44,888 nucleotides of DNA, from positions 1-44,888 of IMG/VR virus record IMGVR_UViG_3300046820_000639; one strand, given 5' to 3'. Position 1 is the stretch's first letter. Every line of letters starts with the position of its first letter. Both the position numbers and the translations under genes were made by a program. The notes under the pieces are model-generated. The model had not been told where the DNA came from, ran no database searches, and saw only the letters and a list, made by a program, of their open reading frames with translations. Source of the stretch: a virus. This document shows, piece after piece, positions 1 to 36,283 of this stretch.

Positions 1-49
1 GGTTGCGTAGCCAATTGAAAATTGCAGAATCTTGATAGTGTCTGGTCAT
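1..49 (-). CDS. Partial CDS, N-terminus only, predicted leaderless
   Basis: The first 16 codons of a minus-strand gene that leaves the window at its left edge. The ATG at 49 lies exactly 6 nt downstream of a TATAAT box, so transcription should begin at or next to the start codon and no Shine-Dalgarno is present. The fragment (begins MTRHYQDSAIF) is too short for a function call. It is included because promoter geometry supports the start. Confidence 0.5.
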   Translation of the reverse strand, partial: MTRHYQDSAIFNWLRN

Positions 50-55
50 ATGTTT

Positions 56-83
56 ATTATACAATAATTTTGATATTAGTCAA
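56..83 (-). promoter_or_regulatory. Early-type promoter (leaderless geometry)
   Basis: On the minus strand, TTGACT (83-78) and TATAAT (61-56) are separated by 16 nt. The -35 box overlaps the stop codon of the upstream gene. The -10 box is followed by 6 nt and then ATG, as at five other promoters in this window. Confidence 0.7.
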
Positions 84-369
84 AGTCTTTAACAAAATCA
101 AATACAGTACCCAATTTAACTTTTAATTTGGTTTCGGTTACTGTATGTATATCGCTGGTGTCGATGGTTTTATGTAAATGGTGTTTTAGAAACATAACAG
201 TGAACTCTGTGAAATTCTTGCCCCATTTTTCATACCAGTATTCAGCAGTGGGATATGTTCTACTGCCGTCGACTGTGAGGTAGTAAACATGATCCACTAC
301 TTCGCAATCCACAATTATTCTCAGCGGGCCTATGTCTTTTCTAATAGCCTCGATAATTTCTTGGTTCAT
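76..369 (-). CDS. Hypothetical early protein, 97 aa
   Basis: A 97-residue protein starting MNQEIIEAIRKD. I recognise no domain. The sequence is mixed alpha/beta in character, with aromatic residues in the middle (YWYEKWGKNFTEF). It is the last gene of a coupled minus-strand run: its ATG overlaps the upstream stop as ATGA (369-366). The next promoter begins at its stop codon, so it probably ends an early transcription unit. The coupling makes it a likely real gene of unknown function. Confidence 0.7.
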   Translation of the reverse strand: MNQEIIEAIRKDIGPLRIIVDCEVVDHVYYLTVDGSRTYPTAEYWYEKWGKNFTEFTVMFLKHHLHKTIDTSDIHTVTETKLKVKLGTVFDFVKDFD

Positions 370-584
370 TCTCTTCCGTACTTTACTGTTACTTTATCTA
401 GTGTTCTTTTGGCAATGCCCGACGAAGGGTGCTCTGGGTACATACGTTTAATATCATCTAATGCAGTCCACATAATTTCGTGTTCTTCTTGTTGACGATA
501 CATTCGATCACGCAAACTGCTAGCATCTAGTATGCTCATTATTGCCGATATCAAACGAGGTATTACACGTACCCAAATCTCCAT
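366..584 (-). CDS. Hypothetical early protein, 72 aa
   Basis: A short protein starting MEIWVRVIPRLI, with a hydrophobic N-terminal third and a charged remainder (RDRMYRQQEEHE). Its start codon abuts the stop of the upstream gene (TAA at 587-585, ATG at 584), and its stop overlaps the next start. No family is recognised. Gene status rests on the tight operon packing. Confidence 0.6.
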   Translation of the reverse strand: MEIWVRVIPRLISAIMSILDASSLRDRMYRQQEEHEIMWTALDDIKRMYPEHPSSGIAKRTLDKVTVKYGRE

Positions 585-860
585 TTATGCCAGCAGGTCG
601 ATGGCCTGCAATTTAATCCATGTTAGTTCTTTGTAATCAACATGCTCGTGTCGTCTGTACAGGTCTCTGCCATTTTTAATGATAGTAACTCCATTGGCAT
701 TTTCCATCCATACTCGACGACTGTGCATCATGGCTTCTGCGTGAAAACGTTTTTCAACTGCCGGAGACTCTTCAGGGTGGTAATTGAATTGTGCAATATA
801 TCGGTGTTGTTGTCCAAATACTTTAGCACCCTGTTCTAATTCGTAATAAACATCAATCAT
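585..860 (-). CDS. Hypothetical early protein, 91 aa
   Basis: A 91-residue protein starting MIDVYYELEQGAKVFGQQ, with patterns typical of small phage early proteins (RYIAQFNYHPEESPAVEKRF, then basic residues). It overlaps the upstream gene by 8 nt and abuts the downstream gene. No domain is recognised. Confidence 0.65.
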   Translation of the reverse strand: MIDVYYELEQGAKVFGQQHRYIAQFNYHPEESPAVEKRFHAEAMMHSRRVWMENANGVTIIKNGRDLYRRHEHVDYKELTWIKLQAIDLLA

Positions 861-1185
861 TGTATTGTTCCTTTAGTACGTCAAATTCGTCGCCGTAGGC
901 ATAAAATGTCCCACCGGGTCCAAAACGTTGTCTACGATAAATTACATCGCCTTTAAAATACCAACGCCCGTTGACTCTTCTGGGCATGAGTGTTACGGTA
1001 TACGGCTCCCAAGCTCCCCAAGTTATTGCCTGTTTCATACGCTGAACTTCTTTTATAACTTGTTCAGTTTGATTACGCAGTTCTGCCATAGATGCTGACA
1101 TTTCATCATTCATTTCTTTGATCATATGATCCATATTTTTGTATACGCCGTTGGTTTCTTTGAGCATGCGGTCAATTTCGTTCAT
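853..1185 (-). CDS. Hypothetical protein with N-terminal coiled coil, 110 aa
   Basis: The first half (residues about 1-50) is a heptad-like helix rich in Met, Glu and Lys, probably a coiled coil. The second half is beta-rich and basic, with a RRVNGRWYFKGDVIYRRQRF stretch that suggests a small nucleic-acid or protein-binding barrel. The start overlaps the upstream stop as ATGA. Function unknown. Confidence 0.65.
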   Translation of the reverse strand: MNEIDRMLKETNGVYKNMDHMIKEMNDEMSASMAELRNQTEQVIKEVQRMKQAITWGAWEPYTVTLMPRRVNGRWYFKGDVIYRRQRFGPGGTFYAYGDEFDVLKEQYND

Positions 1186-1430
1186 AGGTATTTCATCCTA
1201 AACCAAGTTTCCTTAACATCGTCGTAGAAGTCTAGGCATATATAATTTTTTATACTGTAACCAGTGCCTTCTGTTCCGTCGTATATTTTTTCTTGATGAT
1301 GCCTGACTGTAAAACCCAGTTCTCTTTTCATTGTGTCACGAATAAGCCGAACGCTAGCAGGTTGATCAGCAAATACAAAATCTCTGACCTTGTTCCATTC
1401 CCGTTCGTTAAGTTTGATAGTTCTAGGCAT
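1182..1430 (-). CDS. Small early protein, possible divergent member of the LKW array
   Basis: An 82-residue protein (MPRTIKLNEREWNKVRDFV). Its C-terminus (DDVKETWFRMKYL) resembles the ATxFxLKW ending of the next seven genes upstream, so it may be a diverged member of that tandem array. It overlaps its upstream neighbour by 8 nt and its downstream neighbour by 4 nt. Function unknown. Confidence 0.65.
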   Translation of the reverse strand: MPRTIKLNEREWNKVRDFVFADQPASVRLIRDTMKRELGFTVRHHQEKIYDGTEGTGYSIKNYICLDFYDDVKETWFRMKYL

Positions 1431-1722
1431 TGTTCCATTTCAATTGAAAAAGTGTTGCTTCCTTGTCATCCTTGATATAGATGGTATACATAGGGTCACC
1501 GGAATTGAAACGATGCGTACAATCTGTGGTGGGGCAATTCTCTGCCATCCATTGTTCAAACTCTTGATGGTCTTTAGGATAAGCCCAGCAATACCAACCT
1601 CGTGGAGGAATATTAGGCCAGTTGCTTCCTGGATTAACGGGATCCACACCGTTTTCAAAACGCCAATGATGAACTACAGTTTTACGCACACTAACCCATC
1701 CTCCTGGTACAGCCTTTAACAT
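1423..1722 (-). CDS. LKW-array small protein 1
   Basis: A 99-residue protein beginning MLKAVPGGWVSV and ending KEATLFQLKWNNA. It belongs to a tandem set of paralogous small proteins that share this terminal motif. The ATG at 1722 overlaps the upstream stop as TAATG, which favours it over an in-frame GTG at 1731. Trp-rich middle (RGWYCWAYPKDHQEFEQWM). The family is familiar in large phages, but I know of no assigned function. Confidence 0.7.
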   Translation of the reverse strand: MLKAVPGGWVSVRKTVVHHWRFENGVDPVNPGSNWPNIPPRGWYCWAYPKDHQEFEQWMAENCPTTDCTHRFNSGDPMYTIYIKDDKEATLFQLKWNNA

Positions 1723-2009
1723 TAGGTCCACTTTAAACTGAATATTGTAGCATCTTTTTTACTTTTAAACAACCATATACCCATATGTTCTTGATGCTCA
1801 TCTGTGCAATTTTGATGTACCCAATCTTTTATATCAACCCAACTGTGCGTAGGTGATACATAGTTTATAACGATTTTTGTCCAACCCAAATCGACCATTA
1901 CATCACTTAAGATAGTGAAATCAATGGACTTTGCCATTTGCAAACTTGCTTGATGGATAATCTCGTCCTGCAGATCTGTAACGGGTACTGCTTTTTTAAA
2001 TTTCTTCAT
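1722..2009 (-). CDS. LKW-array small protein 2
   Basis: A 95-residue protein starting MKKFKKAVPVTDLQDE and ending KKDATIFSLKWT. It shares with its neighbours an ending in which a short charged turn (SKKDA) leads into a final beta strand. It also has a Trp-containing helix (DWVHQNCTDEHQEHMGIWLF) comparable to its neighbours. It starts 3 nt after the upstream stop. Function unknown. Confidence 0.7.
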   Translation of the reverse strand: MKKFKKAVPVTDLQDEIIHQASLQMAKSIDFTILSDVMVDLGWTKIVINYVSPTHSWVDIKDWVHQNCTDEHQEHMGIWLFKSKKDATIFSLKWT

Positions 2010-2012
2010 TGG

Positions 2013-2210
2013 TTACATCCATTTTAATGTAAACAGCGTTGCATCTGGACCGTTTTTAAAAACAAAATAGTAACCAAGATTACGCCAATTGGCGCTTTTA
2101 AAGTTTTCGTAACACCAACGCTCTAAATCCCTAATTGTTGGTAAATTGGGATTTCTGTCGGTGCTCATTCTTATTTGATGAGGCCAATATTTTTTATTGA
2201 ATACCCTCAT
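2013..2210 (-). CDS. LKW-array small protein 3
   Basis: A 65-residue protein starting MRVFNKKYWPHQIRM and ending GPDATLFTLKWM. It is the shortest clear member of the array: it keeps the helix (LERWCYENFKSANW) and the terminal strand. It overlaps the upstream gene by 17 nt, which suggests translational coupling. Function unknown. Confidence 0.7.
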   Translation of the reverse strand: MRVFNKKYWPHQIRMSTDRNPNLPTIRDLERWCYENFKSANWRNLGYYFVFKNGPDATLFTLKWM

Positions 2211-2577
2211 AGTTGGTCCCTCCTAACTTCATCCACATATAACGCTTTTGCAATTCATCTAAAAAATATCGTGCTGGTTCTTCAGCATCAAATTTTACGC
2301 CCTCTACAACATAATGACCGACAATATGCGAAGTTAAGTAATCTCTAGCGTGGTCGTCTCCGGTGTACCACAACGCACTATCAATTGAATATGTTTCTAG
2401 TTCGCCATTATTTAAACTTACTCCCAACTGTGCTCGAGCAAGATTCAATTCTTCAAACAACATTTTTAGTACACGCTGGAGTTTTGCAGGATTATTAACC
2501 AGCACACGTTCGTAGCCTGGCCAAGATACTGCCCAACCACGTGGTAGCTCTGTGATAACAAAAGGTCCGGCGTACAT
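2194..2577 (-). CDS. Hypothetical early protein within the LKW array
   Basis: A 127-residue protein from the ATG at 2577 (MYAGPFVITELPRGW), which overlaps the upstream stop as TAATG; an in-frame ATG at 2586 would add three residues. Unlike its neighbours it lacks the clear ATxFxLKW ending, although RYMWMKLGGTNYEG is loosely similar. No known domain is visible. Confidence 0.65.
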   Translation of the reverse strand: MYAGPFVITELPRGWAVSWPGYERVLVNNPAKLQRVLKMLFEELNLARAQLGVSLNNGELETYSIDSALWYTGDDHARDYLTSHIVGHYVVEGVKFDAEEPARYFLDELQKRYMWMKLGGTNYEGIQ

Positions 2578-2834
2578 TATGTCCATCTCAATCTAAATGC
2601 AGTTGCATCAATATCTTTGTAAAAATAATAAGAACAGTAATTGTCGGGTCCGCGCCAACTACTGATATCACTCATGTCTGTGCTATCCCACCAAACAAAA
2701 CTTTCACAATGCTCTCTAGCCCAGGTACGCATGTCTTTTGGTCTATGCTTATCACCATCGACGTCCACACGATAACACCGGTCAAGCACTTCTCGTGGAG
2801 GTTTAAATTGATCTCTATTAATTGCCGGAAACAT
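2577..2834 (-). CDS. LKW-array small protein 4
   Basis: An 85-residue protein (MFPAINRDQFKPPREVLD) ending KDIDATAFRLRWT, a member of the tandem family. The middle is rich in Trp, Asp and Ser (ESFVWWDSTDMSDISSWRG). It overlaps the upstream gene by 17 nt. Function unknown. Confidence 0.7.
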   Translation of the reverse strand: MFPAINRDQFKPPREVLDRCYRVDVDGDKHRPKDMRTWAREHCESFVWWDSTDMSDISSWRGPDNYCSYYFYKDIDATAFRLRWT

Positions 2835-3072
2835 TATTACCCCATTTTAACATAAAGAACGTATGCTCTTTTTCTGTCAGTGTTGCTACAATTTTATATT
2901 GCTGATAAAAGTTTGTGTGATCCCAGTGTGAGGCCCAGTAAGTGTCTATGCTGTTCTCCATTACCCATTTGCCAGCTTCAGTTTGTTGCCATTCCCAAAT
3001 TGGCTGTACGGCATAGATTTCAGGATCGTCTACATCACCGACGGAAAATGTATGTACTATAGTTTTAATCAA
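2818..3072 (-). CDS. LKW-array small protein 5, TTG start
   Basis: An 84-residue protein ending EKEHTFFMLKWGNNVSGN, so the family motif is followed by a short tail. The start is a TTG whose last bases form the upstream TGA stop (TTGA, 3072-3069), a coupled non-AUG start. It has the typical helix (EWQQTEAGKWVMENSIDTYW). Function unknown. Confidence 0.65.
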   Translation of the reverse strand: MIKTIVHTFSVGDVDDPEIYAVQPIWEWQQTEAGKWVMENSIDTYWASHWDHTNFYQQYKIVATLTEKEHTFFMLKWGNNVSGN

Positions 3073-3320
3073 TTGATTAAACCCCCTACAAATTCCACTG
3101 CCAATTCTTGCAAGTCTTTTCTAAACCCGCCCGATTTAAGCTGAAACATCAGTGCATCATTTTCAGTTTCAAATACAAAGTCCATGTAATCTGTTGTAGG
3201 ATGAAACTGCACACGTTCCCCGGGAAGGCCATAGGTCTCTACAGTCCAGGCCAGCAGTTCGTTCCACGCGTCGCCGTGATTGTAGGGATCTTGCCAAGGT
3301 ACTCTAACAGTTATGCCCAT
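3069..3320 (-). CDS. LKW-array small protein 6
   Basis: An 83-residue protein starting MGITVRVPWQDPYNHGD. The family motif appears as ENDALMFQLKSGGF and is followed by about 17 more residues, so Trp is replaced and the tail is extended. It overlaps the upstream gene by 10 nt. Function unknown. Confidence 0.7.
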   Translation of the reverse strand: MGITVRVPWQDPYNHGDAWNELLAWTVETYGLPGERVQFHPTTDYMDFVFETENDALMFQLKSGGFRKDLQELAVEFVGGLIN

Positions 3321-3508
3321 AGTAATGCGAAATGCACCGCATCCTCCTTGCGTTGAAATTTAAATTCCCATCGCCAACTTGGAAACATATTATCAATGTT
3401 GTATTGTTCTCTGCCTATATTTGTATCGCACCACATTACAGCACCGTGTACGTCACTAGCAGAACCTTCGCCTAATTTTGTATTTGAGTTTAAGATAACA
3501 GAATGCAT
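3311..3508 (-). CDS. LKW-array small protein 7, first gene, predicted leaderless
   Basis: A 65-residue protein (MHSVILNSNTKLGEG) ending KEDAVHFALLWA, a diverged family motif. The ATG at 3508 lies exactly 6 nt after a TATAAT box (3520-3515) and has no Shine-Dalgarno, so it should be translated from a leaderless mRNA. It heads the coupled early operon that runs down to position 76. An upstream in-frame non-ATG start would fall inside the promoter and is rejected. Confidence 0.7.
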   Translation of the reverse strand: MHSVILNSNTKLGEGSASDVHGAVMWCDTNIGREQYNIDNMFPSWRWEFKFQRKEDAVHFALLWA

Positions 3509-3514
3509 AGCAAT

Positions 3515-3543
3515 ATTATACAATATTGCGATTTATTTGTCTT
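3515..3543 (-). promoter_or_regulatory. Early promoter for the LKW-array operon
   Basis: On the minus strand, TATAAT (3520-3515) with a weak -35 AAGACA 17 nt upstream. Six nt separate the -10 box from the ATG at 3508. It lies between two same-strand genes and overlaps the end of the upstream one. Confidence 0.6.
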
Positions 3544-3922
3544 GATCTTTAAGGATTTCGAATATACGTTTTTGTTCTTTGAATTTCTTTTCGGCCGCAC
3601 GGTAAGCATCACCTAGGGCCTTTAACTCATCAAACTCGGACTCGAGTTGTGGGTTGGGAGTTAGTATACCCAAACGACTTTCAATGCTTTCTAACATTTG
3701 GGTTAAATCGCGTCCTTTAACTGTAACATTACCATCAAATACTGCTTCACCCTTGACATATATTGTTGCAGAGCTAGCAGTGGTGTCCCACCCCGATGTG
3801 CTGGCCCATACATACGGGCTAGCAGTTCCAGTAACTCCGGTGTTTAGAGTAAAGCTCGTTTGAGTGCCACCGGCGAGCGTAATATTTCCGGTGGGAATAG
3901 CGGTTGTGTAGGTATGTGACAT
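3533..3922 (-). CDS. Putative virion structural protein with C-terminal coiled coil
   Basis: A 129-residue protein. Residues 1-70 are Thr/Ser/Gly-rich and beta-like. They are followed by a VFDGNVTVKGRDLTQMLESI motif that I associate with phage structural or fibre-type proteins, and then a Leu/Glu/Lys helix (ESRLGILTPNPQLESEFDEL) likely to be a coiled coil. The fibre-like protein at 36292-37542 contains a similar VLEGDVTIKG element. The start is leaderless (TATACT, 6 nt, ATG). Confidence 0.6.
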   Translation of the reverse strand: MSHTYTTAIPTGNITLAGGTQTSFTLNTGVTGTASPYVWASTSGWDTTASSATIYVKGEAVFDGNVTVKGRDLTQMLESIESRLGILTPNPQLESEFDELKALGDAYRAAEKKFKEQKRIFEILKDQDK

Positions 3923-3928
3923 AGCTAA

Positions 3929-3956
3929 AGTATATATTAAAAACTTAATAGGTCAA
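3929..3956 (-). promoter_or_regulatory. Early-type promoter (leaderless geometry)
   Basis: On the minus strand, TTGACC (3956-3951), a 16-nt spacer, TATACT (3934-3929), then 6 nt to the ATG at 3922. Confidence 0.7.
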
Positions 3957-3959
3957 GAG

Positions 3960-3968
3960 ATAAATACT
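3960..3968 (+). promoter_or_regulatory. Late-type promoter motif ATAAATACT
   Basis: ATAAATACT on the plus strand, 27 nt before the ATG of the next plus-strand gene. It resembles the T4 late promoter octamer TATAAATA. The same string precedes the plus-strand gene at 42109 at a similar distance. Confidence 0.55.
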
Positions 3969-3995
3969 TCATAATAGTATTAAGGAGATGCCAAA

Positions 3996-4388
3996 ATGGC
4001 AACAAAATACGGAATTAAACTAGTTTATAATATGAATGGTAATCCAGCAACGCTAGATGCTATGAGATCTACCCCATCTACAAGTCCATTGTACAACGCA
4101 TCGTTGGCAACATGGGCAACACAATACGAATCCTATCTTGACCAGCACAGTTGGGAAGGAACCGACCCTGTTAGAATTAAAATTGAATATGACGCGGGTT
4201 CAGATACTCAGACTGTAACATATTTGATCGAAGGCGCAACAGCCAGCGATGTAGAACAACTACAAAATATGCATGTATGGTTGGGATTATCTGGGGATAT
4301 TTCTCAAGCCGCTGAATGGCGTAAAAGCTATAGAGAAAGTGTTGGTATTGAATTAGCCAGCAAAGAAGTTGTAACTTTCGAAGTATAA
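3996..4388 (+). CDS. Hypothetical late protein, 130 aa
   Basis: A 130-residue soluble protein (MATKYGIKLVYNMNGNPATL). It is the only plus-strand gene with its own late-type promoter in the early region, and it is bounded by a strong terminator. AAGGAG lies 8 nt before the ATG. The sequence alternates helices and strands (VRIKIEYDAGSDTQTVTYL) and has no motif I recognise. Late expression suggests a virion or assembly role; this is inferred only. Confidence 0.7.
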   Translation: MATKYGIKLVYNMNGNPATLDAMRSTPSTSPLYNASLATWATQYESYLDQHSWEGTDPVRIKIEYDAGSDTQTVTYLIEGATASDVEQLQNMHVWLGLSGDISQAAEWRKSYRESVGIELASKEVVTFEV

Positions 4389-4414
4389 AAAACGGGTCCT
4401 TAGGACCCGTTTTA
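4389..4414. terminator. Bidirectional intrinsic terminator
   Basis: An inverted repeat, AACGGGTCC / GGACCCGTT, with A-rich and T-rich flanks. It sits between the ends of two convergent genes and can serve both strands. Confidence 0.85.
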
Positions 4415-4419
4415 TTTTG

Positions 4420-5250: not shown

Positions 5251-5283
5251 GTCAAACTCCTTATAAAACTGTATTGTATATTA

Positions 5284-5658: not shown

Positions 5659-5684
5659 ATTAGTATTTAATGCGGGCAAAGAAA

Positions 5685-6079: not shown

Positions 6080-6478
6080 TTAAACAAAGTCGTCATTGTA
6101 CGGAACAGGTTGCCAACCCAGTTTGAGGAGATCCTCTCGAATCTCCTCAGTTACGTGGCCTTCGGGTGCATAGCCCTTGGTAAGAAAATGAGCTTGTGCC
6201 TCTTCTTCGGTTTCGTCATCTAGTGCGGCAAATCTGCCCATACCAGAACAATACCAATCCATGTAATCACCTTTGCCTTGTATTTGGGCAATGATTCCCC
6301 CGGCAGATCTCCAACTACAACCCCATAGCTCATCTTTTAAAATGGGCATAACGTCACGCTTTTGCCACTGCATGTTGCACATGGCCGCATACAAATTTTG
6401 GGCATAACTATCGCTGGCTCGAACTTTGTCTTTGAGCCATTGGCAATCCATCATATCGTCAAGCATATTGTGTTCCAT
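6080..6478 (-). CDS. Phage early protein of the CSW/DWYCSG family, copy 2
   Basis: A 132-residue paralogue of the 5284-5658 product. It shares YAQNLYAAMCN, CSWRSAGGIIAQI, YMDWYCSGMG and VTEEIREDLLKLGWQP, with an insertion of about 15 residues before the last block. The ATG at 6478 lies 6 nt after TATAAT, so it should be leaderless. Conserved Cys and Trp residues suggest a structured fold. No function is known to me. Confidence 0.8.
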   Translation of the reverse strand: MEHNMLDDMMDCQWLKDKVRASDSYAQNLYAAMCNMQWQKRDVMPILKDELWGCSWRSAGGIIAQIQGKGDYMDWYCSGMGRFAALDDETEEEAQAHFLTKGYAPEGHVTEEIREDLLKLGWQPVPYNDDFV

Positions 6479-6484
6479 GTGTGT

Positions 6485-6513
6485 ATTATAAAAGTATTTT
6501 TGATTTTTGTCAA
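6485..6513 (-). promoter_or_regulatory. Early-type promoter (leaderless geometry)
   Basis: Minus-strand TTGACA (6513-6508), 17-nt spacer, TATAAT (6490-6485), then ACACAC and the ATG. Consensus-perfect boxes. Confidence 0.8.
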
Positions 6514-11823: not shown

Positions 11824-12169
11824 TTTCAAAAGCCTTGGCATGTTTGCAATCACCGCGGAACTTAAAACCGCTACAAGTGCATTTTAACACATTATCAATT
11901 TTTTCTACAATATAAGTATCGCCTTTGGAGCCTTTTACTTCCCAACGCTGACCTTCGGATTTTTCTTCTTTGATTGAATAGTCAAAGGTATTCGGCACTT
12001 CCACAAACTTGCGACCACGAGTGCTGATGCGAATTGGCTTTTTGAACTCAAAGACCGCCTTGGTACCTACTTTGATGTAGGCATACATTTTTTCCTTGCT
12101 GTCGTTGAGCAGGTAAATGTGGTTGGGAGTAGGAACGTCCCATGCAGTAGTTTCTTGAAAGAATTTCAT
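11816..12169 (-). CDS. SWIM zinc-finger-like protein
   Basis: A 117-residue protein. The C-terminal CTCSGFKFRGDCKHAKAF matches the SWIM pattern CxCxnCxH, a zinc-binding module found in DNA- and protein-binding contexts. The N-terminal 90 residues are beta-rich and basic (KKPIRISTRGRKFVEV). GGAG precedes the ATG, and promoter 12226-12198 drives it. It heads the operon that continues through DNA ligase. Confidence 0.8.
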   Translation of the reverse strand: MKFFQETTAWDVPTPNHIYLLNDSKEKMYAYIKVGTKAVFEFKKPIRISTRGRKFVEVPNTFDYSIKEEKSEGQRWEVKGSKGDTYIVEKIDNVLKCTCSGFKFRGDCKHAKAFENA

Positions 12170-12197: not shown

Positions 12198-12226
12198 ATT
12201 ATAGATTATTTGGAATTAATGGTCAA
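12198..12226 (-). promoter_or_regulatory. Early promoter heading the ligase operon
   Basis: Minus-strand TTGACC (12226-12221), 17-nt spacer and TATAAT (12203-12198). The spacer carries the ATTCCAAATAATC-type element seen in several other promoters here. Confidence 0.85.
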
Positions 12227-12670: not shown

Positions 12671-13084
12671 ATGCAATATTTTACCTACATATGGATTGAT
12701 AAATCTAGAAAAATGTTTTACATCGGAATACACGAAGGAAAAGTAGATGACAACTACGTTTCTTCTAGTAGGTGGTTTAATGGTGAATACCAATATCGCC
12801 CGGGCGATTTTAAACGAAAAATACTTAAACTTTTTGATAACAGAGCTTCCGCAAGAAAAGAAGAAGCAAGATTACTTGCATTAGTTAAAGAAGCTGAGTT
12901 TGGAACTAGATACTATAACCTCAAAACAGGAAGACCTAAGGGCACTCCTGCATCAAACAAAGGTAAATCAATGTCGCTGGAACAGAGAGAAAAACTTAGT
13001 GCCGCCAAATTGGGGAAAACTTCGGTAAGAAAAGGTATTCCTAATAAAATAAAGCTAGTTGATTCTGTTTCCAAGTTCAACTAG
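12671..13084 (+). CDS. GIY-YIG homing endonuclease with NUMOD3-like motif
   Basis: A 137-residue protein from the ATG at 12671 (strong GGAGG upstream; an upstream in-frame start is rejected). The N-terminus YFTYIWIDKSRKMFYIGIHE is a divergent GIY-YIG core. Later come RASARKEEARLL with the usual Glu-containing helix, and a GTPASNKGKSMSLEQREKLS / KLGKTSVRKGIPNK region typical of NUMOD3 DNA-binding repeats. It is free-standing, converges on the tmRNA gene and stops at its edge, so the tmRNA locus may be its homing site. Confidence 0.85.
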   Translation: MQYFTYIWIDKSRKMFYIGIHEGKVDDNYVSSSRWFNGEYQYRPGDFKRKILKLFDNRASARKEEARLLALVKEAEFGTRYYNLKTGRPKGTPASNKGKSMSLEQREKLSAAKLGKTSVRKGIPNKIKLVDSVSKFN

Positions 13085-13402
13085 CAAAACTCAGATGGGC
13101 CTAAGTTAGGCGGCCATCAAAAATGCGTTATCATTTGCATTTAAAGGTTTTGCTTCTACGACCGGGTTCCCCCAATCCTAACGGGTTCTGCTTTCCCGTG
13201 CTGTCTGCTCTGCTACTTAATACCACGTCGAAACCTGGTCAGGCCCATCATAAAAGGACTAATGCAAACACAACAAGAACAACTATTATACCTATTCCTA
13301 GGCTGGTTAGATCGTCATTCATGCTAATCTCCTTATGGTGGACCTGGAGGGAATCGAACCCTCGTCCGCAACACCTTTTACATCACTTCATACAGCAATA
13401 AC
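13085..13402 (-). ncRNA. ssrA: Permuted two-piece tmRNA (ssrA)
   Basis: On the minus strand the acceptor piece comes first (about 13402-13336). It has T-arm stem GAGGG / CCCTC, loop TTCGATT, acceptor strand CAGGTCC, discriminator A and an encoded CCA at 13338-13336. The coding piece follows (13246 to about 13085), starting GGGCCTGACCAGGTTTCGAC, the tmRNA 5' signature. GGGCCTG pairs with CAGGTCC over 7 bp and includes G3-U70, the alanine identity pair. ACAGCA in the coding piece can pair with TGCTGT in the acceptor piece (helix 2). The order is circularly permuted, as in alphaproteobacterial and some betaproteobacterial or cyanobacterial genes. Exact processing ends are estimated. Confidence 0.93.
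13106..13138 (-). other. tmRNA tag reading frame
   Basis: From the resume codon GCA at 13138 the frame reads ANDNAFLMAA and ends in TAA. The start AND and the end AA fit known degradation tags, but the third-last residue is Met rather than the usual Leu or Val. The stop lies in a hairpin GCCTA / TAGGC, the expected helix 5. Confidence 0.92.
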
Positions 13403-13403
13403 T

Positions 13404-13559
13404 TTAATTATAACCTCTAATCACATTATTGTCAATCTTAGGATTACCTTTGGCTAATACAACCTTGTTGGCTTCTTTTTCCCGCTGTTCACGTTCAAGC
13501 TCTTTGACCGTTTGTGTTTTATCTGTTCTACTACTTGACAATTTTGTGGGTTGTTGCAT
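13404..13559 (-). CDS. Small charged protein upstream of tmRNA, 51 aa
   Basis: From the ATG at 13559 (MQQPTKLSSSRTDKTQTVKE), a highly charged coiled-coil-like helix (ELEREQREKEANKVVLAKGN). Its stop codon lies directly against the tmRNA acceptor piece, so the two could share a transcript. AATAAATACT lies 5 nt upstream of the ATG and no Shine-Dalgarno is seen. The longer frame to 13640 is rejected because it crosses that motif. Confidence 0.55.
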   Translation of the reverse strand: MQQPTKLSSSRTDKTQTVKELEREQREKEANKVVLAKGNPKIDNNVIRGYN

Positions 13560-15153: not shown

Positions 15154-15182
15154 ATTATAAAATAAAATGAATTATGGGTCAA
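15154..15182 (-). promoter_or_regulatory. Early promoter
   Basis: Minus-strand TTGACC (15182-15177), 17-nt spacer, TATAAT (15159-15154). Confidence 0.85.
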
Positions 15183-15187: not shown

Positions 15188-15463
15188 TTACACGGCTTCC
15201 AGCATATTAGCCGGAACATTGTAACGGCCCGCAGGAGTAGCAACCAACACATACTTTAGTTTAACCTTTTCCACGGTACCTTGATATGTGATGCCGTTGC
15301 GGTTAGACGTAAACTTTACCACATCACCTGCACGTAGGGCACGAGTGTTCTGCTTAGTCAATTGGCTACGAGCGAAACGAAGTGCATCTGCAATAGCATC
15401 CAGATCTTGGTTAGAAAAACGACCCGAAATAATAGCACTACGCACATTTCCAAGTTCAGTCAT
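15188..15463 (-). CDS. Phage protein with C-terminal SH3/KOW-like domain, 91 aa
   Basis: The N-terminal helix (FSNQDLDAIADALRFARSQL) is followed by LRAGDVVKFTSNRNGITYQG and TVEKVKLKYVLVATPAGRYN, a small barrel resembling SH3 or KOW modules. The family is common in large phages. Promoter 15522-15494, AAGGAG before the ATG. Function unknown, perhaps nucleic-acid binding. Confidence 0.75.
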   Translation of the reverse strand: MTELGNVRSAIISGRFSNQDLDAIADALRFARSQLTKQNTRALRAGDVVKFTSNRNGITYQGTVEKVKLKYVLVATPAGRYNVPANMLEAV

Positions 15464-15493: not shown

Positions 15494-15522
15494 ATTATAG
15501 ATTAAATGGATTTTTGGGTCAA
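15494..15522 (-). promoter_or_regulatory. Early promoter
   Basis: Minus-strand TTGACC (15522-15517), 17-nt spacer with AATCCATTTAATC, TATAAT (15499-15494). The -35 box overlaps the last codons of the upstream gene. Confidence 0.85.
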
Positions 15523-15752
15523 CCAAAAGCCTTTACAAGCCCTGTAAGCCCGATTGCTAGGGCTACAATGTTAACCAGCAACTGTGGCTTATTTGCAACA
15601 CGGATAGTCCAGATTAGGAACAAGATAGTTCCTATAAAAAATGTAAGGATGTTGTAAGGATAGGCACTGGGCCCAACAGCATTTAGGCTATGTCCGCCAA
15701 TGATAAACACGGCACCTGCCCACTGTAAGATTTCGTTAGTATCTAATTTCAT
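15519..15752 (-). CDS. Integral membrane protein, three predicted TM segments, predicted leaderless
   Basis: A 77-residue hydrophobic protein: ILQWAGAVFIIGGHSLNAVG, ILTFFIGTILFLIWTIRVAN and VNIVALAIGLTGLVKAF. The layout recalls one half of a small SemiSWEET or PnuC-like transporter and phage DUF6552-type proteins. The family is not certain. The ATG lies 6 nt after TATACT with no Shine-Dalgarno. Confidence 0.7.
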   Translation of the reverse strand: MKLDTNEILQWAGAVFIIGGHSLNAVGPSAYPYNILTFFIGTILFLIWTIRVANKPQLLVNIVALAIGLTGLVKAFG

Positions 15753-15758
15753 GCTATG

Positions 15759-15787
15759 AGTATAGCATAAATGGATTTATTGGTCAA
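15759..15787 (-). promoter_or_regulatory. Early-type promoter (leaderless geometry)
   Basis: Minus-strand TTGACC (15787-15782), 17-nt spacer with AATCCATTTATGC, TATACT (15764-15759), then 6 nt to the ATG. Confidence 0.8.
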
Positions 15788-30583: not shown

Positions 30584-30617
30584 TTGGCTCTCTTAATTGA
30601 AAAAACGTGGTCGATAA

Positions 30618-30628
30618 AGTATTTATTA
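30618..30628 (-). promoter_or_regulatory. Late-type motif AATAAATACT upstream of the ClpP operon
   Basis: Minus strand, about 35 nt before the ATG at 30583. Supports late expression of clpP2, radical SAM, clpP1 and groES as one unit. Confidence 0.5.
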
Positions 30629-30668
30629 TACAGTATCTTCCACGATTTCCAAAACGGTTTTTATACCA

Positions 30669-31406: not shown

Positions 31407-31461
31407 TCTAAACCTCTTAGGTTAAATTGCGATAACAACATATTAACATTTAATGTCATTA

Positions 31462-31902: not shown

Positions 31903-32132
31903 GAGCAATAATGTTTTAGTCTAGCAACCTGAATGTCAATGGTACGATCATACTGTGATTCTGTGACATCGCCTTGTGTGGGTTTACCTTTAAGGCTCAT
32001 CAAGTATCTAACATGACGTTGTGCATTGGCACAATCAGGGGCCAATTCTGTAACAGTTGCGTATGGCGGACGATGTTGATTAGCACAGCCCGCCAACACA
32101 GCTACAAGAATTAGACTGTAACGGTACGCCAT
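31899..32132 (-). CDS. Putative lipoprotein, 77 aa
   Basis: A 77-residue protein with signal MAYRYSLILVAVLAGCANQH (lipobox LAGC). Mature part LAPDCANAQRHVRYLMSLKG ... IDIQVARLKHYC shares the PDC...YC pattern with the neighbour at 31462-31902. Its small size recalls Rz1-like spanin lipoproteins, but it lacks their Pro-richness. Function unknown. Confidence 0.65.
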   Translation of the reverse strand: MAYRYSLILVAVLAGCANQHRPPYATVTELAPDCANAQRHVRYLMSLKGKPTQGDVTESQYDRTIDIQVARLKHYCS

Positions 32133-32305
32133 GGATCACGTGCCTTTTTATGAAACGTGGTCACTGCCTTGATGGCTTTTTGTGCCGTGGGCTCATCAGT
32201 ATGAGCATTACGCTGAACATAACGAACAGCGTCACGAGTGTTGAATTGCAGTACAAATACTGCCTCATTGGCCATGGCTTCTACGCGGTTATTCAAAGTA
32301 GTCAT
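32111..32305 (-). CDS. Hypothetical protein, 64 aa
   Basis: Starts at the second of two adjacent ATGs (32305; AAGGAG about 7 nt upstream). A helical protein (MTTLNNRVEAMANEAVFVLQ then AQKAIKAVTTFHKKARDPWR). It overlaps the lipoprotein start downstream. No domain seen. Confidence 0.6.
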   Translation of the reverse strand: MTTLNNRVEAMANEAVFVLQFNTRDAVRYVQRNAHTDEPTAQKAIKAVTTFHKKARDPWRTVTV

Positions 32306-32471
32306 CATCTTCTCCTTGGTTACGATGCTTGGGTTTACGAACATAAGTGTCTTTGCGTTTTACAATCTTAGGCTTGAACGGACTGTCCTCGTCGAACAGT
32401 ACGCGATGCACCCTCGGGTTGGGACTGCGATTTAAAACTTTGGGTTTTTGTTCCCGACGATCTTTTGACAT
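32289..32471 (-). CDS. Basic hypothetical protein, 60 aa, overlaps upstream gene
   Basis: A Lys/Arg-rich protein (MSKDRREQKPKVLNRSPNPR) ending KHRNQGEDDDYFE. It overlaps the 32368-32721 gene by 104 nt in another frame, which is unusual here. It may be a separate gene, or the second half of a single product joined by a frameshift at about 32470. Low certainty. Confidence 0.4.
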   Translation of the reverse strand: MSKDRREQKPKVLNRSPNPRVHRVLFDEDSPFKPKIVKRKDTYVRKPKHRNQGEDDDYFE

Positions 32472-32721
32472 GATACTCTGGGTCTTTGTCTTGAACTTGG
32501 CTAATCATACTGCTCAGATAATGCGATACTAATTTCTTTTGTATCATATCTGTGACAGTTAGATGCGGCCATTCCATGATAAAGGGACAACCATCCTTCC
32601 ATCGGCTGTGTTTAAGAAAATATTGATACTCTTTGAGATCCACTGGATCAATTGGGTTAAAAAGTCTTTTGGTCCAATAATGCTCTGACAATCTAAAACG
32701 TTTGGGTGCTCTGTTAGACAT
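32368..32721 (-). CDS. Hypothetical protein, 117 aa
   Basis: Starts MSNRAPKRFRLSEHYWTKRL; the first 85 residues look well structured (EYQYFLKHSRWKDGCPFIME and TVTDMIQKKLVSHYLSSMIS). The last 30 residues are low-complexity Ser/Gln/Arg where it overlaps the next frame, so the true C-terminus may be different. AAGGA lies upstream and a consensus promoter 70 nt upstream. Confidence 0.6.
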   Translation of the reverse strand: MSNRAPKRFRLSEHYWTKRLFNPIDPVDLKEYQYFLKHSRWKDGCPFIMEWPHLTVTDMIQKKLVSHYLSSMISQVQDKDPEYHVKRSSGTKTQSFKSQSQPEGASRTVRRGQSVQA

Positions 32722-32790
32722 AGTGTCGATCAGTTCCTTAGTTTAGTTAATAAACCGCTGTCGCGGGCTTGAAACTTCAACAACAAAACA

Positions 32791-32819
32791 ATTATAAATT
32801 AATTGGAATTACTGGTCAA
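32791..32819 (-). promoter_or_regulatory. Early promoter
   Basis: Minus-strand TTGACC (32819-32814), 17-nt spacer with ATTCCAATTAATT, TATAAT (32796-32791). The -35 box overlaps the stop of the upstream gene. Confidence 0.85.
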
Positions 32820-33010
32820 TCAACTTGAATGTCTGCAATCTTGCCATCTCGAAAGATAAAGTAAAGGTTCATAAAACTCCAATAAACCCATACACATTCA
32901 TTGCCCGGGGTCATTACATAGTAGGTCCCTGGGTAGTTCTCCTCCATATAGGCGCCAACTTGAATTGCTTCGAATTCGTTGACGCCGGCTCTTACCTCGG
33001 CGTTACGCAT
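32816..33010 (-). CDS. Hypothetical protein, 64 aa
   Basis: A small aromatic-rich protein (MRNAEVRAGVNEFEAIQVGA then YMEENYPGTYYVMTPG). TAATG coupling with the upstream gene. Function unknown. Confidence 0.6.
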   Translation of the reverse strand: MRNAEVRAGVNEFEAIQVGAYMEENYPGTYYVMTPGNECVWVYWSFMNLYFIFRDGKIADIQVD

Positions 33011-33321
33011 TACATTGACCAGTAAGTTTCGGAACTAGGGCTACAGCACAAAGGAGTGTCTGCATCTTCTAGGTATTTTTTACCTGTCATCAAATTAGTA
33101 CGCTCAACCATGTTATCTCGATACAACTCAACTTTCATCATTTTCAAGTTGCTGTCTAGAGCACAAAGACGAGTTGAACTACGTTTTTCACCATGGGTAA
33201 TGTCAATCCAAGGGGTCACTGCACCAGATGCACTAGGACTCAGTGTAATGTTAGTAATAGTACCATTCAAACGACCTGCGGCACTTACCCAAGTAATTTT
33301 AGTTCCAATTTCTAGCTTCAT
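33010..33321 (-). CDS. Small SH3-like beta-barrel protein, 103 aa
   Basis: From the ATG at 33321 with AGGAG upstream (MKLEIGTKITWVSAAGRLNG). The N-terminal 60 residues (TKITWVSAAGRLNGTITNIT, then WIDITHGEKRSSTRLCALD) look like a KOW/SH3 barrel; the C-terminus is less ordered (DADTPLCCSPSSETYW). Consensus promoter upstream. Function unknown. Confidence 0.65.
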   Translation of the reverse strand: MKLEIGTKITWVSAAGRLNGTITNITLSPSASGAVTPWIDITHGEKRSSTRLCALDSNLKMMKVELYRDNMVERTNLMTGKKYLEDADTPLCCSPSSETYWSM

Positions 33322-33352
33322 CTTAGACTCCTTGTTTATCACTATAACTACT

Positions 33353-33381
33353 ATTATAGATTAAATGGATTTAACGGTCAA
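33353..33381 (-). promoter_or_regulatory. Early promoter
   Basis: Minus-strand TTGACC (33381-33376), 17-nt spacer with AATCCATTTAATC, TATAAT (33358-33353). Nearly identical to the promoter at 15494-15522. Confidence 0.88.
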
Positions 33382-33385
33382 CCAT

Positions 33386-33414
33386 AAAAAAAGCCCCGTT
33401 TTTGGGGCTTTTTT
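33386..33414 (-). terminator. Intrinsic terminator
   Basis: Hairpin AAAAGCCCC / GGGGCTTTT with a T-run, between the phasin-like gene and the next promoter. Confidence 0.9.
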
Positions 33415-33437
33415 GGGTGTTGCTTTTATGCAACAGA

Positions 33438-33680
33438 TTACTTCTTAGCAAAATACTTGGTAACGTCAAATTTGCTGAAATCAAAAGCTTCTGCTTTTGG
33501 CAAGTTTTCAACTACCAATTTGGCCAATTCTAGGTTGGTATTGTAAACAGTTTTTGTATAGTCGGCTTGTGCATCAACTAGAGCTTCAAACTCTTTGCGG
33601 ATTCCTTCTTCTTTAACGAAAGAAACCATTTGCTTGGTATTTTTTACTGCTTGGTCAACGATTGTATCAAATGTAAACAT
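33438..33680 (-). CDS. Small phasin-like helical protein, 80 aa
   Basis: An 80-residue all-helical protein (MFTFDTIVDQAVKNTKQMVS then YTKTVYNTNLELAKLVVENL). The amphipathic heptad pattern and length recall phasin-type or similar helical proteins, but no diagnostic motif is present. AAGGAG precedes the ATG. Own promoter (33797-33769) and terminator, so probably abundant. Confidence 0.65.
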   Translation of the reverse strand: MFTFDTIVDQAVKNTKQMVSFVKEEGIRKEFEALVDAQADYTKTVYNTNLELAKLVVENLPKAEAFDFSKFDVTKYFAKK

Positions 33681-33768
33681 AATTTTCTCCTTATTAAGCG
33701 AGTTTACGGGTTTTACACATGGCCCACATTATGCGGCACCTTGTGGTTACTACTAAATTTATTTATCA

Positions 33769-33797
33769 ATTATATGTTGCAACGCAACAAAATGCAA
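33769..33797 (-). promoter_or_regulatory. Early-type promoter with long leader
   Basis: Minus-strand TTGCAT (33797-33792), 17-nt spacer, TATAAT (33774-33769). A leader of about 85 nt follows; it also contains GATAAATAAA (about 33757-33766) and an 11-codon ORF (33729-33694). Confidence 0.55.
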
Positions 33798-33836
33798 GTC
33801 TTTTGGATAAAAAAGTTTTGCATCATTAACAGCCCA

Positions 33837-33845
33837 CTAAATATT
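33837..33845 (+). promoter_or_regulatory. Late-type motif CTAAATATT
   Basis: Plus strand, about 29 nt before the ATG at 33874, followed by AAGGAG. Likely late promoter of the basic protein gene. Confidence 0.45.
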
Positions 33846-33873
33846 TTTACATCAACTTGCAAGGAGATTTTCG

Positions 33874-34149
33874 ATGTTTAAAGCAATTAAAGAGTTTTTC
33901 TTAGGTAAGCCAGCAGAGGCAACACAACCAGAAGCGGCACCTTACAAAGTAGAAACAGCACCAGCAGTACAAGTGGCAGTTGAAGGCGCCGGAGTAGTAG
34001 AAGCTAAACCTGCACCAGCTAAAAAGGCCGCACCAAAGGCTAAAGCACCAGCTAAGCCAAAGGCACCTGTTAAGAAAGCAACAGCACCAAAAGCCAAGGC
34101 ACCTGCCAAAAAAGTACCAGCTAAGAAACCAGCTAAAAAAGCTCAGTAA
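33874..34149 (+). CDS. Histone H1-like Lys/Ala/Pro-rich protein
   Basis: A 91-residue protein. Residues 1-14 (MFKAIKEFFLGKPA) form an amphipathic helix, followed by an acidic/Ala stretch, then from about 48 repeated PAKKA/KAPAK units that resemble histone H1 C-terminal tails and bacterial Hc1/AlgP-type proteins. It probably binds DNA through charge; role in packaging or host nucleoid binding is inferred. Late-type promoter upstream, strong terminator downstream. Confidence 0.75.
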   Translation: MFKAIKEFFLGKPAEATQPEAAPYKVETAPAVQVAVEGAGVVEAKPAPAKKAAPKAKAPAKPKAPVKKATAPKAKAPAKKVPAKKPAKKAQ

Positions 34150-34151
34150 TC

Positions 34152-35255
34152 TTGGTTAGTAGTAGCACAACCGGAATTTTCTATCCCCCAGAGAATTCCG
34201 GTTTTTTTCATTATCATCTTTCAAACCTTAAACAATTTTGTGCCAGTGATGCCAATCATTACTTAACCACAGATGCGTTTATAGCAACACCACACGACCA
34301 TAAGGTAGCGTGTTTTCAAATACCTTACCCATACGATTCTAAATTAGAACAACAAATAGATCTGTTGTACGATCATGTAGACGAAATTGCTATTATAGGA
34401 TGTGAGCTACATCCGCCTACAGTAGATTTTATACGTAGATACGATCGTCCTAAGATCACTTACTTTCTATGCGGGTTCTTGGATCAACCATTACAGCATA
34501 GTCCAACACATTTATTCCTGGACTGGTTCATTACCAGCACTTACTTTTATAAATCTGTTAGACCCGAAACCTTAGATGATCTAACACCGTTTGCAGTCAA
34601 ACCATATACTTTTGATGCTTTGTTAGGTCGTAAGAAACCACACAGGGATCAAGCATATCGCTATATTAACTGTTATCTCAAAGACAACGGCATTACGACC
34701 TACATGAACAGTTATGATACTAACTTTGCCGACAACGACAGTCAGCAATGGATATGGGAAAATCCAGGATTAGTGTTTAAAAAGAAAATTGAATGGACTG
34801 TGGACTTTGTTGATTACTATGGTCACGAGATGAGCATCAGTCAAGTTATTCCAATTGGTGTGTATAACAAAACTGCTTATAGTCTAGTAGCCGAGACCAA
34901 CATAGACAATGACTACGTGTTCTTTACAGAAAAGACTGTAAAGCCTATATTAAGTAAACGCTTGTTTATTACACTAAGCAATAAACATACATTGAAACGT
35001 CTACGTGAACTAGGATTCAAAACATTTAACAGTATCATTGACGAAAGCTACGACAGCATAGACGATCATGAAAGTAGATTTGGTCTTGCACTTACACAAT
35101 TAAATTTATTGTGTGGGTGGGACCAAGCAGAGGTCCTAGAAAAATGCCGAGCTATTGTTGAACACAACGCCCGGCATATGATTGAAACTGACTGGTACGA
35201 GTTATACTTTAGATCTAAATTTGAGAGCTTGTTCAGCAAACGCAAAACTGGCTAA
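34152..35255 (+). CDS. Exostosin-like glycosyltransferase family protein, copy 2, TTG start
   Basis: A 367-residue paralogue of the 16065 gene. The C-terminal block runs VAETNIDNDYVFFTEKTVKP, KRLFITLSNKHTLKRLRELG, FKTFNSIIDESYDSIDDHES. A middle block (FAVKPYTFDALLGRKKPHRD) also matches copy 1. No ATG, GTG or later TTG exists near the N-terminus, so TTG at 34152, 2 nt after the previous stop, is the likely start, by re-initiation. The first 19 codons run through a strong terminator. The 3' end overlaps the UV endonuclease gene by 54 nt. Confidence 0.7.
   Translation: MVSSSTTGIFYPPENSGFFHYHLSNLKQFCASDANHYLTTDAFIATPHDHKVACFQIPYPYDSKLEQQIDLLYDHVDEIAIIGCELHPPTVDFIRRYDRPKITYFLCGFLDQPLQHSPTHLFLDWFITSTYFYKSVRPETLDDLTPFAVKPYTFDALLGRKKPHRDQAYRYINCYLKDNGITTYMNSYDTNFADNDSQQWIWENPGLVFKKKIEWTVDFVDYYGHEMSISQVIPIGVYNKTAYSLVAETNIDNDYVFFTEKTVKPILSKRLFITLSNKHTLKRLRELGFKTFNSIIDESYDSIDDHESRFGLALTQLNLLCGWDQAEVLEKCRAIVEHNARHMIETDWYELYFRSKFESLFSKRKTG
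34169..34208 (+). terminator. Strong intrinsic terminator inside a coding start
   Basis: A 10-bp perfect stem AACCGGAATT / AATTCCGGTT, extendable by 4 pairs including one G-U, 7-nt loop and a run of 7 T. It ends the basic-protein transcript but lies within codons of the downstream glycosyltransferase. Confidence 0.9.
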
Positions 35256-36248
35256 GTTCTTGGCCTTACTCTCGCACATAATATCAAAATTATCTAAAAA
35301 GCCACTAGCCCATTCATTTACTGTAGCATTCCAATAGAAGTCACTGTGTGCTCTCAACTTGGCTTTCTTGTAACCTGCCTCTAGCAAAGATTGATAGTCC
35401 GGAAGAGTGTTTACACAATGTCCAGACAAGTAATCTTCTCTTGACACAGAGTAATGCATAGCTGGACGCACACCACGCCATCCATCAATTACTTGACGCA
35501 CACGCACATCGTTGTGTTGGATATATTCGCCTTCACGAACCCAGTGATGATGAATGTCCATTACTGTGGGAATAATATCATTAAGACTCAAGCAGTCCAA
35601 GAGCCCCCAGGAGTTTTCTTCGTTTTCGAGGGTAATGGTATTGCGGGCTTCGGGGGTAAGTTTTTTGTAGGTATCGCGAATACCTTGGGGACCGGCTCGA
35701 CCCGATATATGTACGTTGATCTTAAAGTCCTGGAAAGATTTACCATAGCCCATCCACCTTGCCATGTCTACGTGATATTCAAACTCTTCGATTGAACGTC
35801 GAACAATATCTCCATTATCACTTGCGAGAACGCAGAATTGACCTGGATGAAAAGATAAACGCACACCAAGCATACGAGCAAGAACACCCACTTCCGCAAA
35901 ATGTTTCTCGCAATAAGCCCTAACGTCAGTGCGACGCCAAAAATAACTCCAAGAAGGCTCGGTATATACAGGAAGAAGGTCACTGCTAAGTCTAACCATT
36001 CTAAGATGTGGGTCAAGATTTCCTACCTTTTCTATTAGTCGTTGAATTGCTTGAATGTTATGAACCATAATGTCCCAGAGTCTTTGTTCTGCGACATCCT
36101 TGGTCTGTCTATTTAGCCAAGCTACAGTTGTGGCTCGTGTATTTAGATCGCGGGTAGGTGATTTTGGATGAATGCCATCAATCTCTGATGCATCATTGAT
36201 CCATTTGCAAGCAAAACCGATACGAGGAGTAGGAATAACTGTAGTCAT
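35202..36248 (-). CDS. uvsE: UV damage endonuclease (UvdE/UvsE family)
   Basis: A 348-residue TIM-barrel nuclease. RIGFACKWIN (family start), HLRMVRLSSDLLP, VRLSFHPGQFCVLASDN (metal His), KINVHISGRAG, ITLENEENSWGL (Glu), PTVMDIHHHWV (Asp/His) and MHYSVSR then RAHSDFYW match UvdE. It nicks 5' to UV photoproducts and starts alternative excision repair. Leaderless early-type promoter upstream. Convergent overlap of 54 nt with the glycosyltransferase gene. Confidence 0.92.
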   Translation of the reverse strand: MTTVIPTPRIGFACKWINDASEIDGIHPKSPTRDLNTRATTVAWLNRQTKDVAEQRLWDIMVHNIQAIQRLIEKVGNLDPHLRMVRLSSDLLPVYTEPSWSYFWRRTDVRAYCEKHFAEVGVLARMLGVRLSFHPGQFCVLASDNGDIVRRSIEEFEYHVDMARWMGYGKSFQDFKINVHISGRAGPQGIRDTYKKLTPEARNTITLENEENSWGLLDCLSLNDIIPTVMDIHHHWVREGEYIQHNDVRVRQVIDGWRGVRPAMHYSVSREDYLSGHCVNTLPDYQSLLEAGYKKAKLRAHSDFYWNATVNEWASGFLDNFDIMCESKAKNLASFAFAEQALKFRSKV

Positions 36249-36254
36249 ATCAGC

Positions 36255-36283
36255 AGTATATATTATGCTGAATTATCAGTCAA
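36255..36283 (-). promoter_or_regulatory. Early-type promoter (leaderless geometry)
   Basis: Minus-strand TTGACT (36283-36278), 17-nt spacer, TATACT (36260-36255), 6 nt, then the ATG at 36248. Confidence 0.8.

What the first reader, a model, noticed from the sequence alone, without database searches (positions are those of the whole stretch)
49..36283. Six promoters with TATA(A/C)T-N6-ATG geometry: a class of leaderless early genes
At 49, 3508, 3922, 6478, 15752 and 36248 (all minus strand) the start codon lies exactly 6 nt after the -10 box, with a -35 box 16 or 17 nt upstream and no Shine-Dalgarno. That puts the expected transcription start at or beside the A of ATG. The constant 6-nt distance over six unrelated genes is unlikely to be chance. 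It suggests these are translated as leaderless mRNAs, perhaps to favour 70S initiation early in infection.
Basis: seen in the sequence. Interest (0 to 1): 0.75.

Follow-up and report, generated by a model that had tools for sequence, protein, structure and literature searches.

The report
Conserved leaderless genes in giant phages
In this group of large freshwater viruses of bacteria, a set of unrelated genes have their promoter so close that the message should begin exactly at the start codon, and that spacing is kept by evolution, so these genes are probably translated without the usual ribosome-binding leader.

Summary
All six TATA(A/C)T-N6-ATG sites exist; the window has 7 matches against 1.4 expected, the seventh inside a gene. 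The window is a fragment of a group of ~340-365 kb phages. In five relatives plus the window, 230 consensus sigma-70 promoters place an ATG exactly 6 nt after the -10 box 59 times, against 4 at 5 nt and 7 at 7 nt; a second, Shine-Dalgarno-bearing class peaks at 30 nt. The 46 leaderless ORFs of 40+ codons fall in 33 families. For the 15752 gene, 39 of 43 distinct upstreams keep TATAAT-N6-ATG with varying hexamers; the other four have SD-like motifs. Orthologues of leaderless genes stay leaderless in 49 of 90 pairs; orthologues of SD genes become so in 1 of 134. A pyrimidine precedes ATG in 57 of 59, the start-site signature also seen in leadered promoters. Leaderless transcription is well supported; 'early' and 'favours 70S' are untested. 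Only two of the six window sites have conserved leaderless orthologues. Leaderless genes are a known kind; I found no report of a conserved class in such phages.

The parts
47..83 (-). TTGACT-16-TATAAT-N6-ATG promoter/start of a gene cut off by the window edge (16 codons visible)
3506..3543 (-). AAGACA(weak)-17-TATAAT-N6-ATG promoter/start; overlaps the end of the upstream gene
3311..3508 (-). 65-aa gene with leaderless-type start; first of a run of small ORFs ending in similar F.LKW motifs
   Evidence: two 32% relatives only
3920..3956 (-). TTGACC-16-TATACT-N6-ATG promoter/start
3533..3922 (-). 129-aa gene, no Pfam/PHROG match; homologues 34-40% identical in three relatives
6476..6513 (-). 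TTGACA-17-TATAAT-N6-ATG (12 of 12 consensus) promoter/start
6080..6478 (-). 132-aa gene, no Pfam/PHROG match; relatives are not leaderless
15750..15787 (-). TTGACC-17-TATACT-N6-ATG promoter/start, conserved in relatives
15519..15752 (-). 77-aa DUF6552 protein
   Evidence: PF20189, 7.5e-07
36246..36283 (-). TTGACT-17-TATACT-N6-ATG promoter/start, conserved in part of the family
35202..36248 (-). UV-damage endonuclease (UvdE)
   Evidence: PF03851, 2.5e-36; phrog_8420
15494..15522 (-). contrast: leadered promoter TTGACC-17-TATAAT, ATG 30 nt downstream (15463) with AAGGAG
15154..15182 (-). contrast: leadered promoter, ATG 32 nt downstream (15121)
33353..33381 (-). contrast: leadered promoter, ATG 31 nt downstream (33321) with AAGGAG
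12198..12226 (-). contrast: leadered promoter, ATG 28 nt downstream (12169) with GGAG

Best explanation
The six sites belong to a conserved class of leaderless genes in a group of large phages. A sigma-70-type promoter sits so that the position RNA polymerase prefers to start from, 7 bp after the -10 box, is the A of the ATG. The transcript then begins 5'-AUG and has no leader or SD, and translation must start at the 5'-terminal AUG. The same phages use the same promoter type about 24 nt further upstream, with an SD, for a larger second class. Shown here: the geometry, its excess, its conservation, the two-class split and the start-site signature. Inferred: the actual transcription start, use of a host-type sigma-70 polymerase, and translation by the leaderless route. 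Unknown: timing and benefit.
For: (1) 59 of 230 strict promoters in five relatives plus the window have ATG at exactly 6 nt; 4 at 5 nt, 7 at 7 nt; full pattern in 20 shuffles 0-1. (2) 12 large relatives: 108 matches with N6 and 8 with N9; backwards control 0 in all 12 (some records are near-duplicates). (3) DUF6552 gene: 38 of 43 distinct upstreams pass with d=6, one more (L138) has TATAAT-N6-ATG with a weak -35, the other four have an SD-like motif; 18 different hexamers, always 6 long, and third-codon-position variability from codon 2 on. (4) Class is kept gene by gene: 49 LL, 17 SD, 24 neither of 90 pairs, against 114 SD, 1 LL, 19 neither of 134. (5) SD of 4+ letters in 1 of 50 leaderless, 107 of 133 leadered. 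(6) Pyrimidine just before ATG in 57 of 59; the same position is Y in 84 of 102 leadered promoters, and the next position is A in 58 of 102. Position 7 is the preferred start position in E. coli (PMC5730371, passages). (7) 33 families among 46 ORFs. (8) Nine reference large phages: 2 matches in all; 100 Burkholderiales genomes: 20 matches in 15.
Against: No transcript data. Of the window's six, only 15752 and 36248 have conserved leaderless orthologues. For 6478, 0 convincing of 34 distinct relative upstreams; the two flagged have poor -10 boxes. The one 3922 homologue classified has an SD. 3508 has a weak -35 and no close relatives. uvdE: 27 of 60 distinct upstreams leaderless-type (22 at d=6, 5 at d=5), 32 not, 1 undecidable. 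Lack of SD is partly mechanical, since a -10 box this close occupies its place; sites at 0-5 and 7-12 nt lack it too (1 of 37 has one). 13 of the 59 d=6 ATGs head ORFs under 40 codons (one, 49, is cut off) and 6 of the 46 long ones have an in-frame SD-like second start.
Confidence: 0.9

Rival explanations
1. Dual-use messages: the 5'-AUG is only a ribosome landing site or short upstream ORF, and the protein is made from a second, SD-led start downstream.
For: In 6 of 59 d=6 sites a short 5'-AUG ORF precedes an SD-led ORF, and two longer ones carry AAGGAG plus an in-frame ATG at +24, in L240 and L241. E. coli has such mRNAs (PMC4965119, abstract).
Against: 40 of 59 are ORFs of 40+ codons with no in-frame SD-led alternative within 60 nt. 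For 15752 the only alternative is a GTG at codon 15 after AGGT, yet codons 2-20 are under coding constraint.
Confidence: 0.12
2. Transcription starts 1-3 nt away from the A, so the mRNAs carry a very short leader rather than none.
For: Start-site choice in E. coli spreads over positions 6-9 (PMC5730371, passages); five distinct uvdE upstreams have d=5.
Against: Sharp peak at d=6 and pyrimidine before the A in 57 of 59.
Confidence: 0.2
3. The spacing reflects an operator or other DNA element overlapping -10 and ATG, not leaderless translation.
For: Some uvdE relatives have a palindrome across the -10 box (L037, L077, L081, L068, L013, L020). Many uvdE promoters share ACTGGC after the -35.
Against: The hexamer is not conserved in sequence (18 versions in one family) and 33 families share only the spacing.
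Confidence: 0.04
4. Chance: A+T-rich DNA with many TATAAT and ATG words.
For: The bare word TATAMT-N6-ATG alone is expected 1.4 times in the window, and one of seven matches (17067, +) is such a case.
Against: Shuffles, N9 control, backwards control and orthologue conservation.
Confidence: 0.02

Closest known systems
TA-led leaderless genes of bacteria (Actinobacteria, Deinococcus-Thermus; PMC3160421 and PMC12340547, passages read)
   Same: -10 box placed just before the start codon in place of an SD
   Different: There a TANNNT box, with a -35 not required in Deinococcus; here full TTGAC/TATAMT promoters in a minority of genes of a phage that otherwise uses SD
Leaderless lambda cI mRNA (named in PMC9031893 passages and PMC4965119 abstract)
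   Same: Phage gene read from a 5'-terminal AUG
   Different: cI is a single repressor gene of a temperate phage (recalled); here 33 families across genomes, among them repair enzymes, a chaperone and small proteins
Leaderless genes of Burkholderia cenocepacia (PMC4603805, passages read)
   Same: Betaproteobacterial; start of transcription exactly at the start codon for 72 annotated genes, TA-rich motif directly upstream
   Different: Host genes mapped by RNA-seq; here phage genes inferred from sequence
E. coli 5'-uAUG mRNAs (PMC4965119, abstract read)
   Same: 5'-terminal AUG, in some cases followed by an SD-led ORF
   Different: Most sites here (40 of 59) have no in-frame SD-led alternative

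Membership tests
Leaderless (TA-led) genes of bacteria | -10-like box at a fixed short distance before the start codon | tested here: met
Leaderless (TA-led) genes of bacteria | No SD before the start codon | tested here: met
   1 of 50 has 4+ SD letters
Leaderless (TA-led) genes of bacteria | Spacing conserved in orthologues | tested here: met
   met for DUF6552 and about half of uvdE, 49 of 90 pairs overall; not met for the 6478 gene
Leaderless (TA-led) genes of bacteria | 5' end of the transcript at the start codon | not testable with these tools
   no RNA data; indirect Y-A signature
Leaderless (TA-led) genes of bacteria | Translation starts at the 5'-terminal AUG | not testable with these tools
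   needs toeprints, ribosome profiling or proteomics
Phage repressor leaderless mRNAs (lambda cI kind) | Gene product is a repressor | tested here: not met
   Pfam names UvdE and DUF6552 in the window and no repressor; genes without a match cannot be judged
5'-uAUG mRNAs | 5'-terminal AUG plus a separate SD-led start downstream | tested here: not met
   not met by 3922, 6478 and 36248; 15752 has only a weak GTG candidate; 49 is cut off and 3508 fell outside the strict scan
Early-expressed phage genes | Transcribed early in infection | not testable with these tools
   no time-course data for this group

The most novel reading that the evidence does not exclude
These phages run two parallel translation routes and supply their own help for the leaderless one. 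Seven of twelve large relatives match an initiator-type tRNA pattern (C1:A72 or A1:A72 mismatch in the three read in full), and initiator tRNA is reported to boost leaderless translation strongly (PMC9031893, passages). The leaderless set would keep being translated when SD-led initiation is changed during infection.
Probability: 0.15. Interest if true: 0.8.

Novelty: new member of a known kind. Interest (0 to 1): 0.55.

Why it matters
Gene finders that rely on SD signals may misplace or miss such starts, so a conserved leaderless class in these freshwater phages would affect annotation. It also offers a natural experiment: the same gene has a leaderless or an SD start in sister phages, which makes the question of what leaderless translation is good for testable.

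Tried and rejected
RegB link (an enzyme that cuts SD motifs; leaderless messages would escape it): PF10715 found in 0 of 11 records, but the control also stayed silent, so nothing follows. Mini-ORFs after TATAAT-N5 in some uvdE relatives looked like leaderless leader peptides; they are explained by a palindrome across the -10 box. Host from ClpP: best hits 58% to mixed Gammaproteobacteria, not informative; the beta-type tmRNA is the better hint. A Burkholderiales assembly contig with four N6 matches (G075 C205, L643) is not related to this group. The initiator tRNA does not track the leaderless count cleanly: absent by pattern in G003, G004, G008, G009, G011, which have 5, 10, 8, 8, 1 matches. 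Relatives of the 3922 gene were not found by the search for related loci but were by tblastn in three of the five fetched genomes. The leadered control gene at 15463 gave only 4 relatives; the upstreams printed show an SD-like motif in L639-L642 by eye.
Full report
Observation. The six sites are real and exact. The window holds 7 matches to TATAMT-N6-ATG, shuffles give 1.42 on average, and none of 100 reaches 7. Five of the six have a -35 of 5-6 matching letters 16-17 nt upstream; 3508 has 4 of 6. Other strong promoters in the same window (ATG at 12169, 15121, 15463, 33321) have 28-32 nt leaders with an SD, so two classes exist side by side.

What the window is. It is an IMG/VR fragment of 44,888 bases without DNA-level match in 50,697 phage records for its first 25 kb. 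Of its 52 non-overlapping ORFs of 100+ codons, 38 have a tblastn match in at least one of five fetched relatives of 338-365 kb. It encodes a permuted tmRNA that matches Rfam's beta_tmRNA family, which hints at a betaproteobacterial host; this is an inference.

Is the spacing more than chance beyond the window? In the five relatives (1.75 Mb) plus the window I counted 230 promoters TTGAC-N17..19-TATAMT. An ATG follows at exactly 6 nt in 59, at 5 nt in 4, at 7 nt in 7; a second broad peak lies at 24-34 nt (30 at exactly 30 nt). The full pattern occurs 0-1 times in 20 shuffles. In 12 large relatives the N6 pattern occurs 108 times and the N9 pattern 8 times, two of the 8 being N6 sites followed by a second ATG; the backwards control is 0 in all 12. 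G001/G012 and G002/G007 share many sites, so the 108 are not independent. Nine well-known large phages (T4, KVP40, phiKZ, S-PM2, HTVC008M, Atu_ph07, AR9, NCTB, G) give 2 matches together, both in S-PM2. They also have few such consensus promoters, 0-13 each, so part of the contrast is promoter style. 100 Burkholderiales genomes give 20 matches in 15 genomes.

Conservation by gene. For the DUF6552 gene (15752) I compared 80 loci with 43 distinct upstream sequences. 38 pass my leaderless test, all with 6 nt; L138 has TATAAT-N6-ATG with a weak -35. The four others lack a promoter there and carry an SD-like motif instead. The hexamer takes 18 forms, always 6 long, and codons 2-20 vary mostly at third positions (0.129, 0.061, 0.335), so coding begins at or very near this ATG. 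For uvdE (36248), 60 distinct upstreams: 22 leaderless at 6 nt, 5 at 5 nt, 32 not, 1 at a contig edge; 10 of the 32 show an SD of 4+ letters. For the 6478 gene, 34 distinct upstreams: none convincing. The 3922 and 3508 genes have only distant relatives. The gene at 49 is cut off. Across the five relatives and the window, 42 leaderless genes of 60+ codons give 90 orthologue pairs: 49 leaderless, 17 SD, 24 neither. 81 leadered genes give 134 pairs: 114 SD, 1 leaderless, 19 neither. The architecture is therefore a lasting property of the gene, sometimes exchanged. The 80 loci (49 hits at 6 nt, 0-11 at most nearby distances) were chosen for carrying uvdE and are not independent evidence.

Where transcription starts. 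In E. coli the preferred start is 7 bp after the -10 box (PMC5730371, passages), which is the A of these ATGs. In leadered promoters of this group position 6 is a pyrimidine in 84 of 102 and position 7 is A in 58 or T in 39; in the leaderless ones position 6 is a pyrimidine in 57 of 59. The same start signature thus appears in both classes. That a pyrimidine precedes ATG also at N6 matches heading short ORFs in other viruses (29 of 35) suggests that this is a promoter feature, not a translation feature.

Translation. An SD of 4+ letters precedes 1 of 50 leaderless starts and 107 of 133 leadered ones, but sites at neighbouring short distances lack it too (1 of 37 has one), because the -10 box takes its place. 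40 of 59 sites head ORFs of 40+ codons with no in-frame SD-led start within 60 nt. Six long ORFs have one (four of them weak), six short 5'-AUG ORFs precede an SD-led ORF, and seven are short without one, among them the cut-off gene at 49. Some messages may therefore be dual-use, as known in E. coli (PMC4965119, abstract).

What the genes are. 46 ORFs of 40+ codons make 33 families. Pfam matches among the 20 relatives' genes and the window genes scanned: UvdE and DUF6552; 3'-5' exoribonuclease, DnaJ, PD-(D/E)XK nuclease, AAA; 4'-phosphopantetheinyl transferase, a methyltransferase, GlutR_dimer. Many are small proteins without a match. Nothing shows that they are early.

Known or new. Leaderless genes with a -10 box next to the start are known in bacteria (PMC3160421, PMC12340547, passages), including a betaproteobacterium (PMC4603805, passages), and lambda cI is the classic phage case. 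The AR9 paper remarks that phage transcripts 'are often leaderless' but finds leaders of 26-491 nt in AR9 (PMC5312081, passages). A 2026 review of jumbo phages has no occurrence of 'leaderless' (PMC13282480, word search only). My searches (listings) showed no report of a conserved leaderless class in such phages; subscription papers are mostly not held.

A bolder lead. Seven of 12 relatives match an initiator-tRNA pattern, 0 of 9 reference phages do. Three of the five genomes read in full (G001, G007, G010) have a tRNA-Met with a mismatched 1:72 pair (C:A, C:A, A:A), the recalled mark of initiator tRNA. More initiator tRNA is reported to enhance leaderless translation strongly (PMC9031893, passages). 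The presence of the tRNA does not track the leaderless count cleanly, so this stays a lead.

Noticed in passing
window 1182-3508 (-): A run of about eight small adjacent ORFs whose proteins end in similar motifs (F.LKW and variants), perhaps tandem paralogues, headed by the leaderless gene at 3508; seen by eye in the translations.
   Followed up: no
window 13050-13449 (-): Permuted tmRNA gene matching Rfam beta_tmRNA; tag ANDNAFLMAA.
   Followed up: partly
G001, G007, G010 (L223:6573-6647 in G007): Phage-encoded initiator-type tRNA-Met with a mismatched 1:72 pair.
   Followed up: partly
L037, L077, L081, L068, L013, L020 upstream of uvdE: A palindrome of about 28 bp centred on the -10 box, probably an operator.
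   Followed up: no
L037:7318, L077:7318, L072:546: Consensus promoter followed at 6 nt by a conserved ATGCGG..CCCGCAATA.AAACTCTGC stretch that is not a long ORF, possibly a small RNA; no Rfam match.
   Followed up: partly
uvdE relatives such as L009, L015, L058: Many uvdE promoters share ACTGGC right after TTGACA (TTGACAACTGGC), perhaps a regulator site.
   Followed up: no
L643 (G075 C205): A contig in a Burkholderiales assembly, unrelated to this phage group, has four N6 leaderless-type promoters within about 6 kb.
   Followed up: partly
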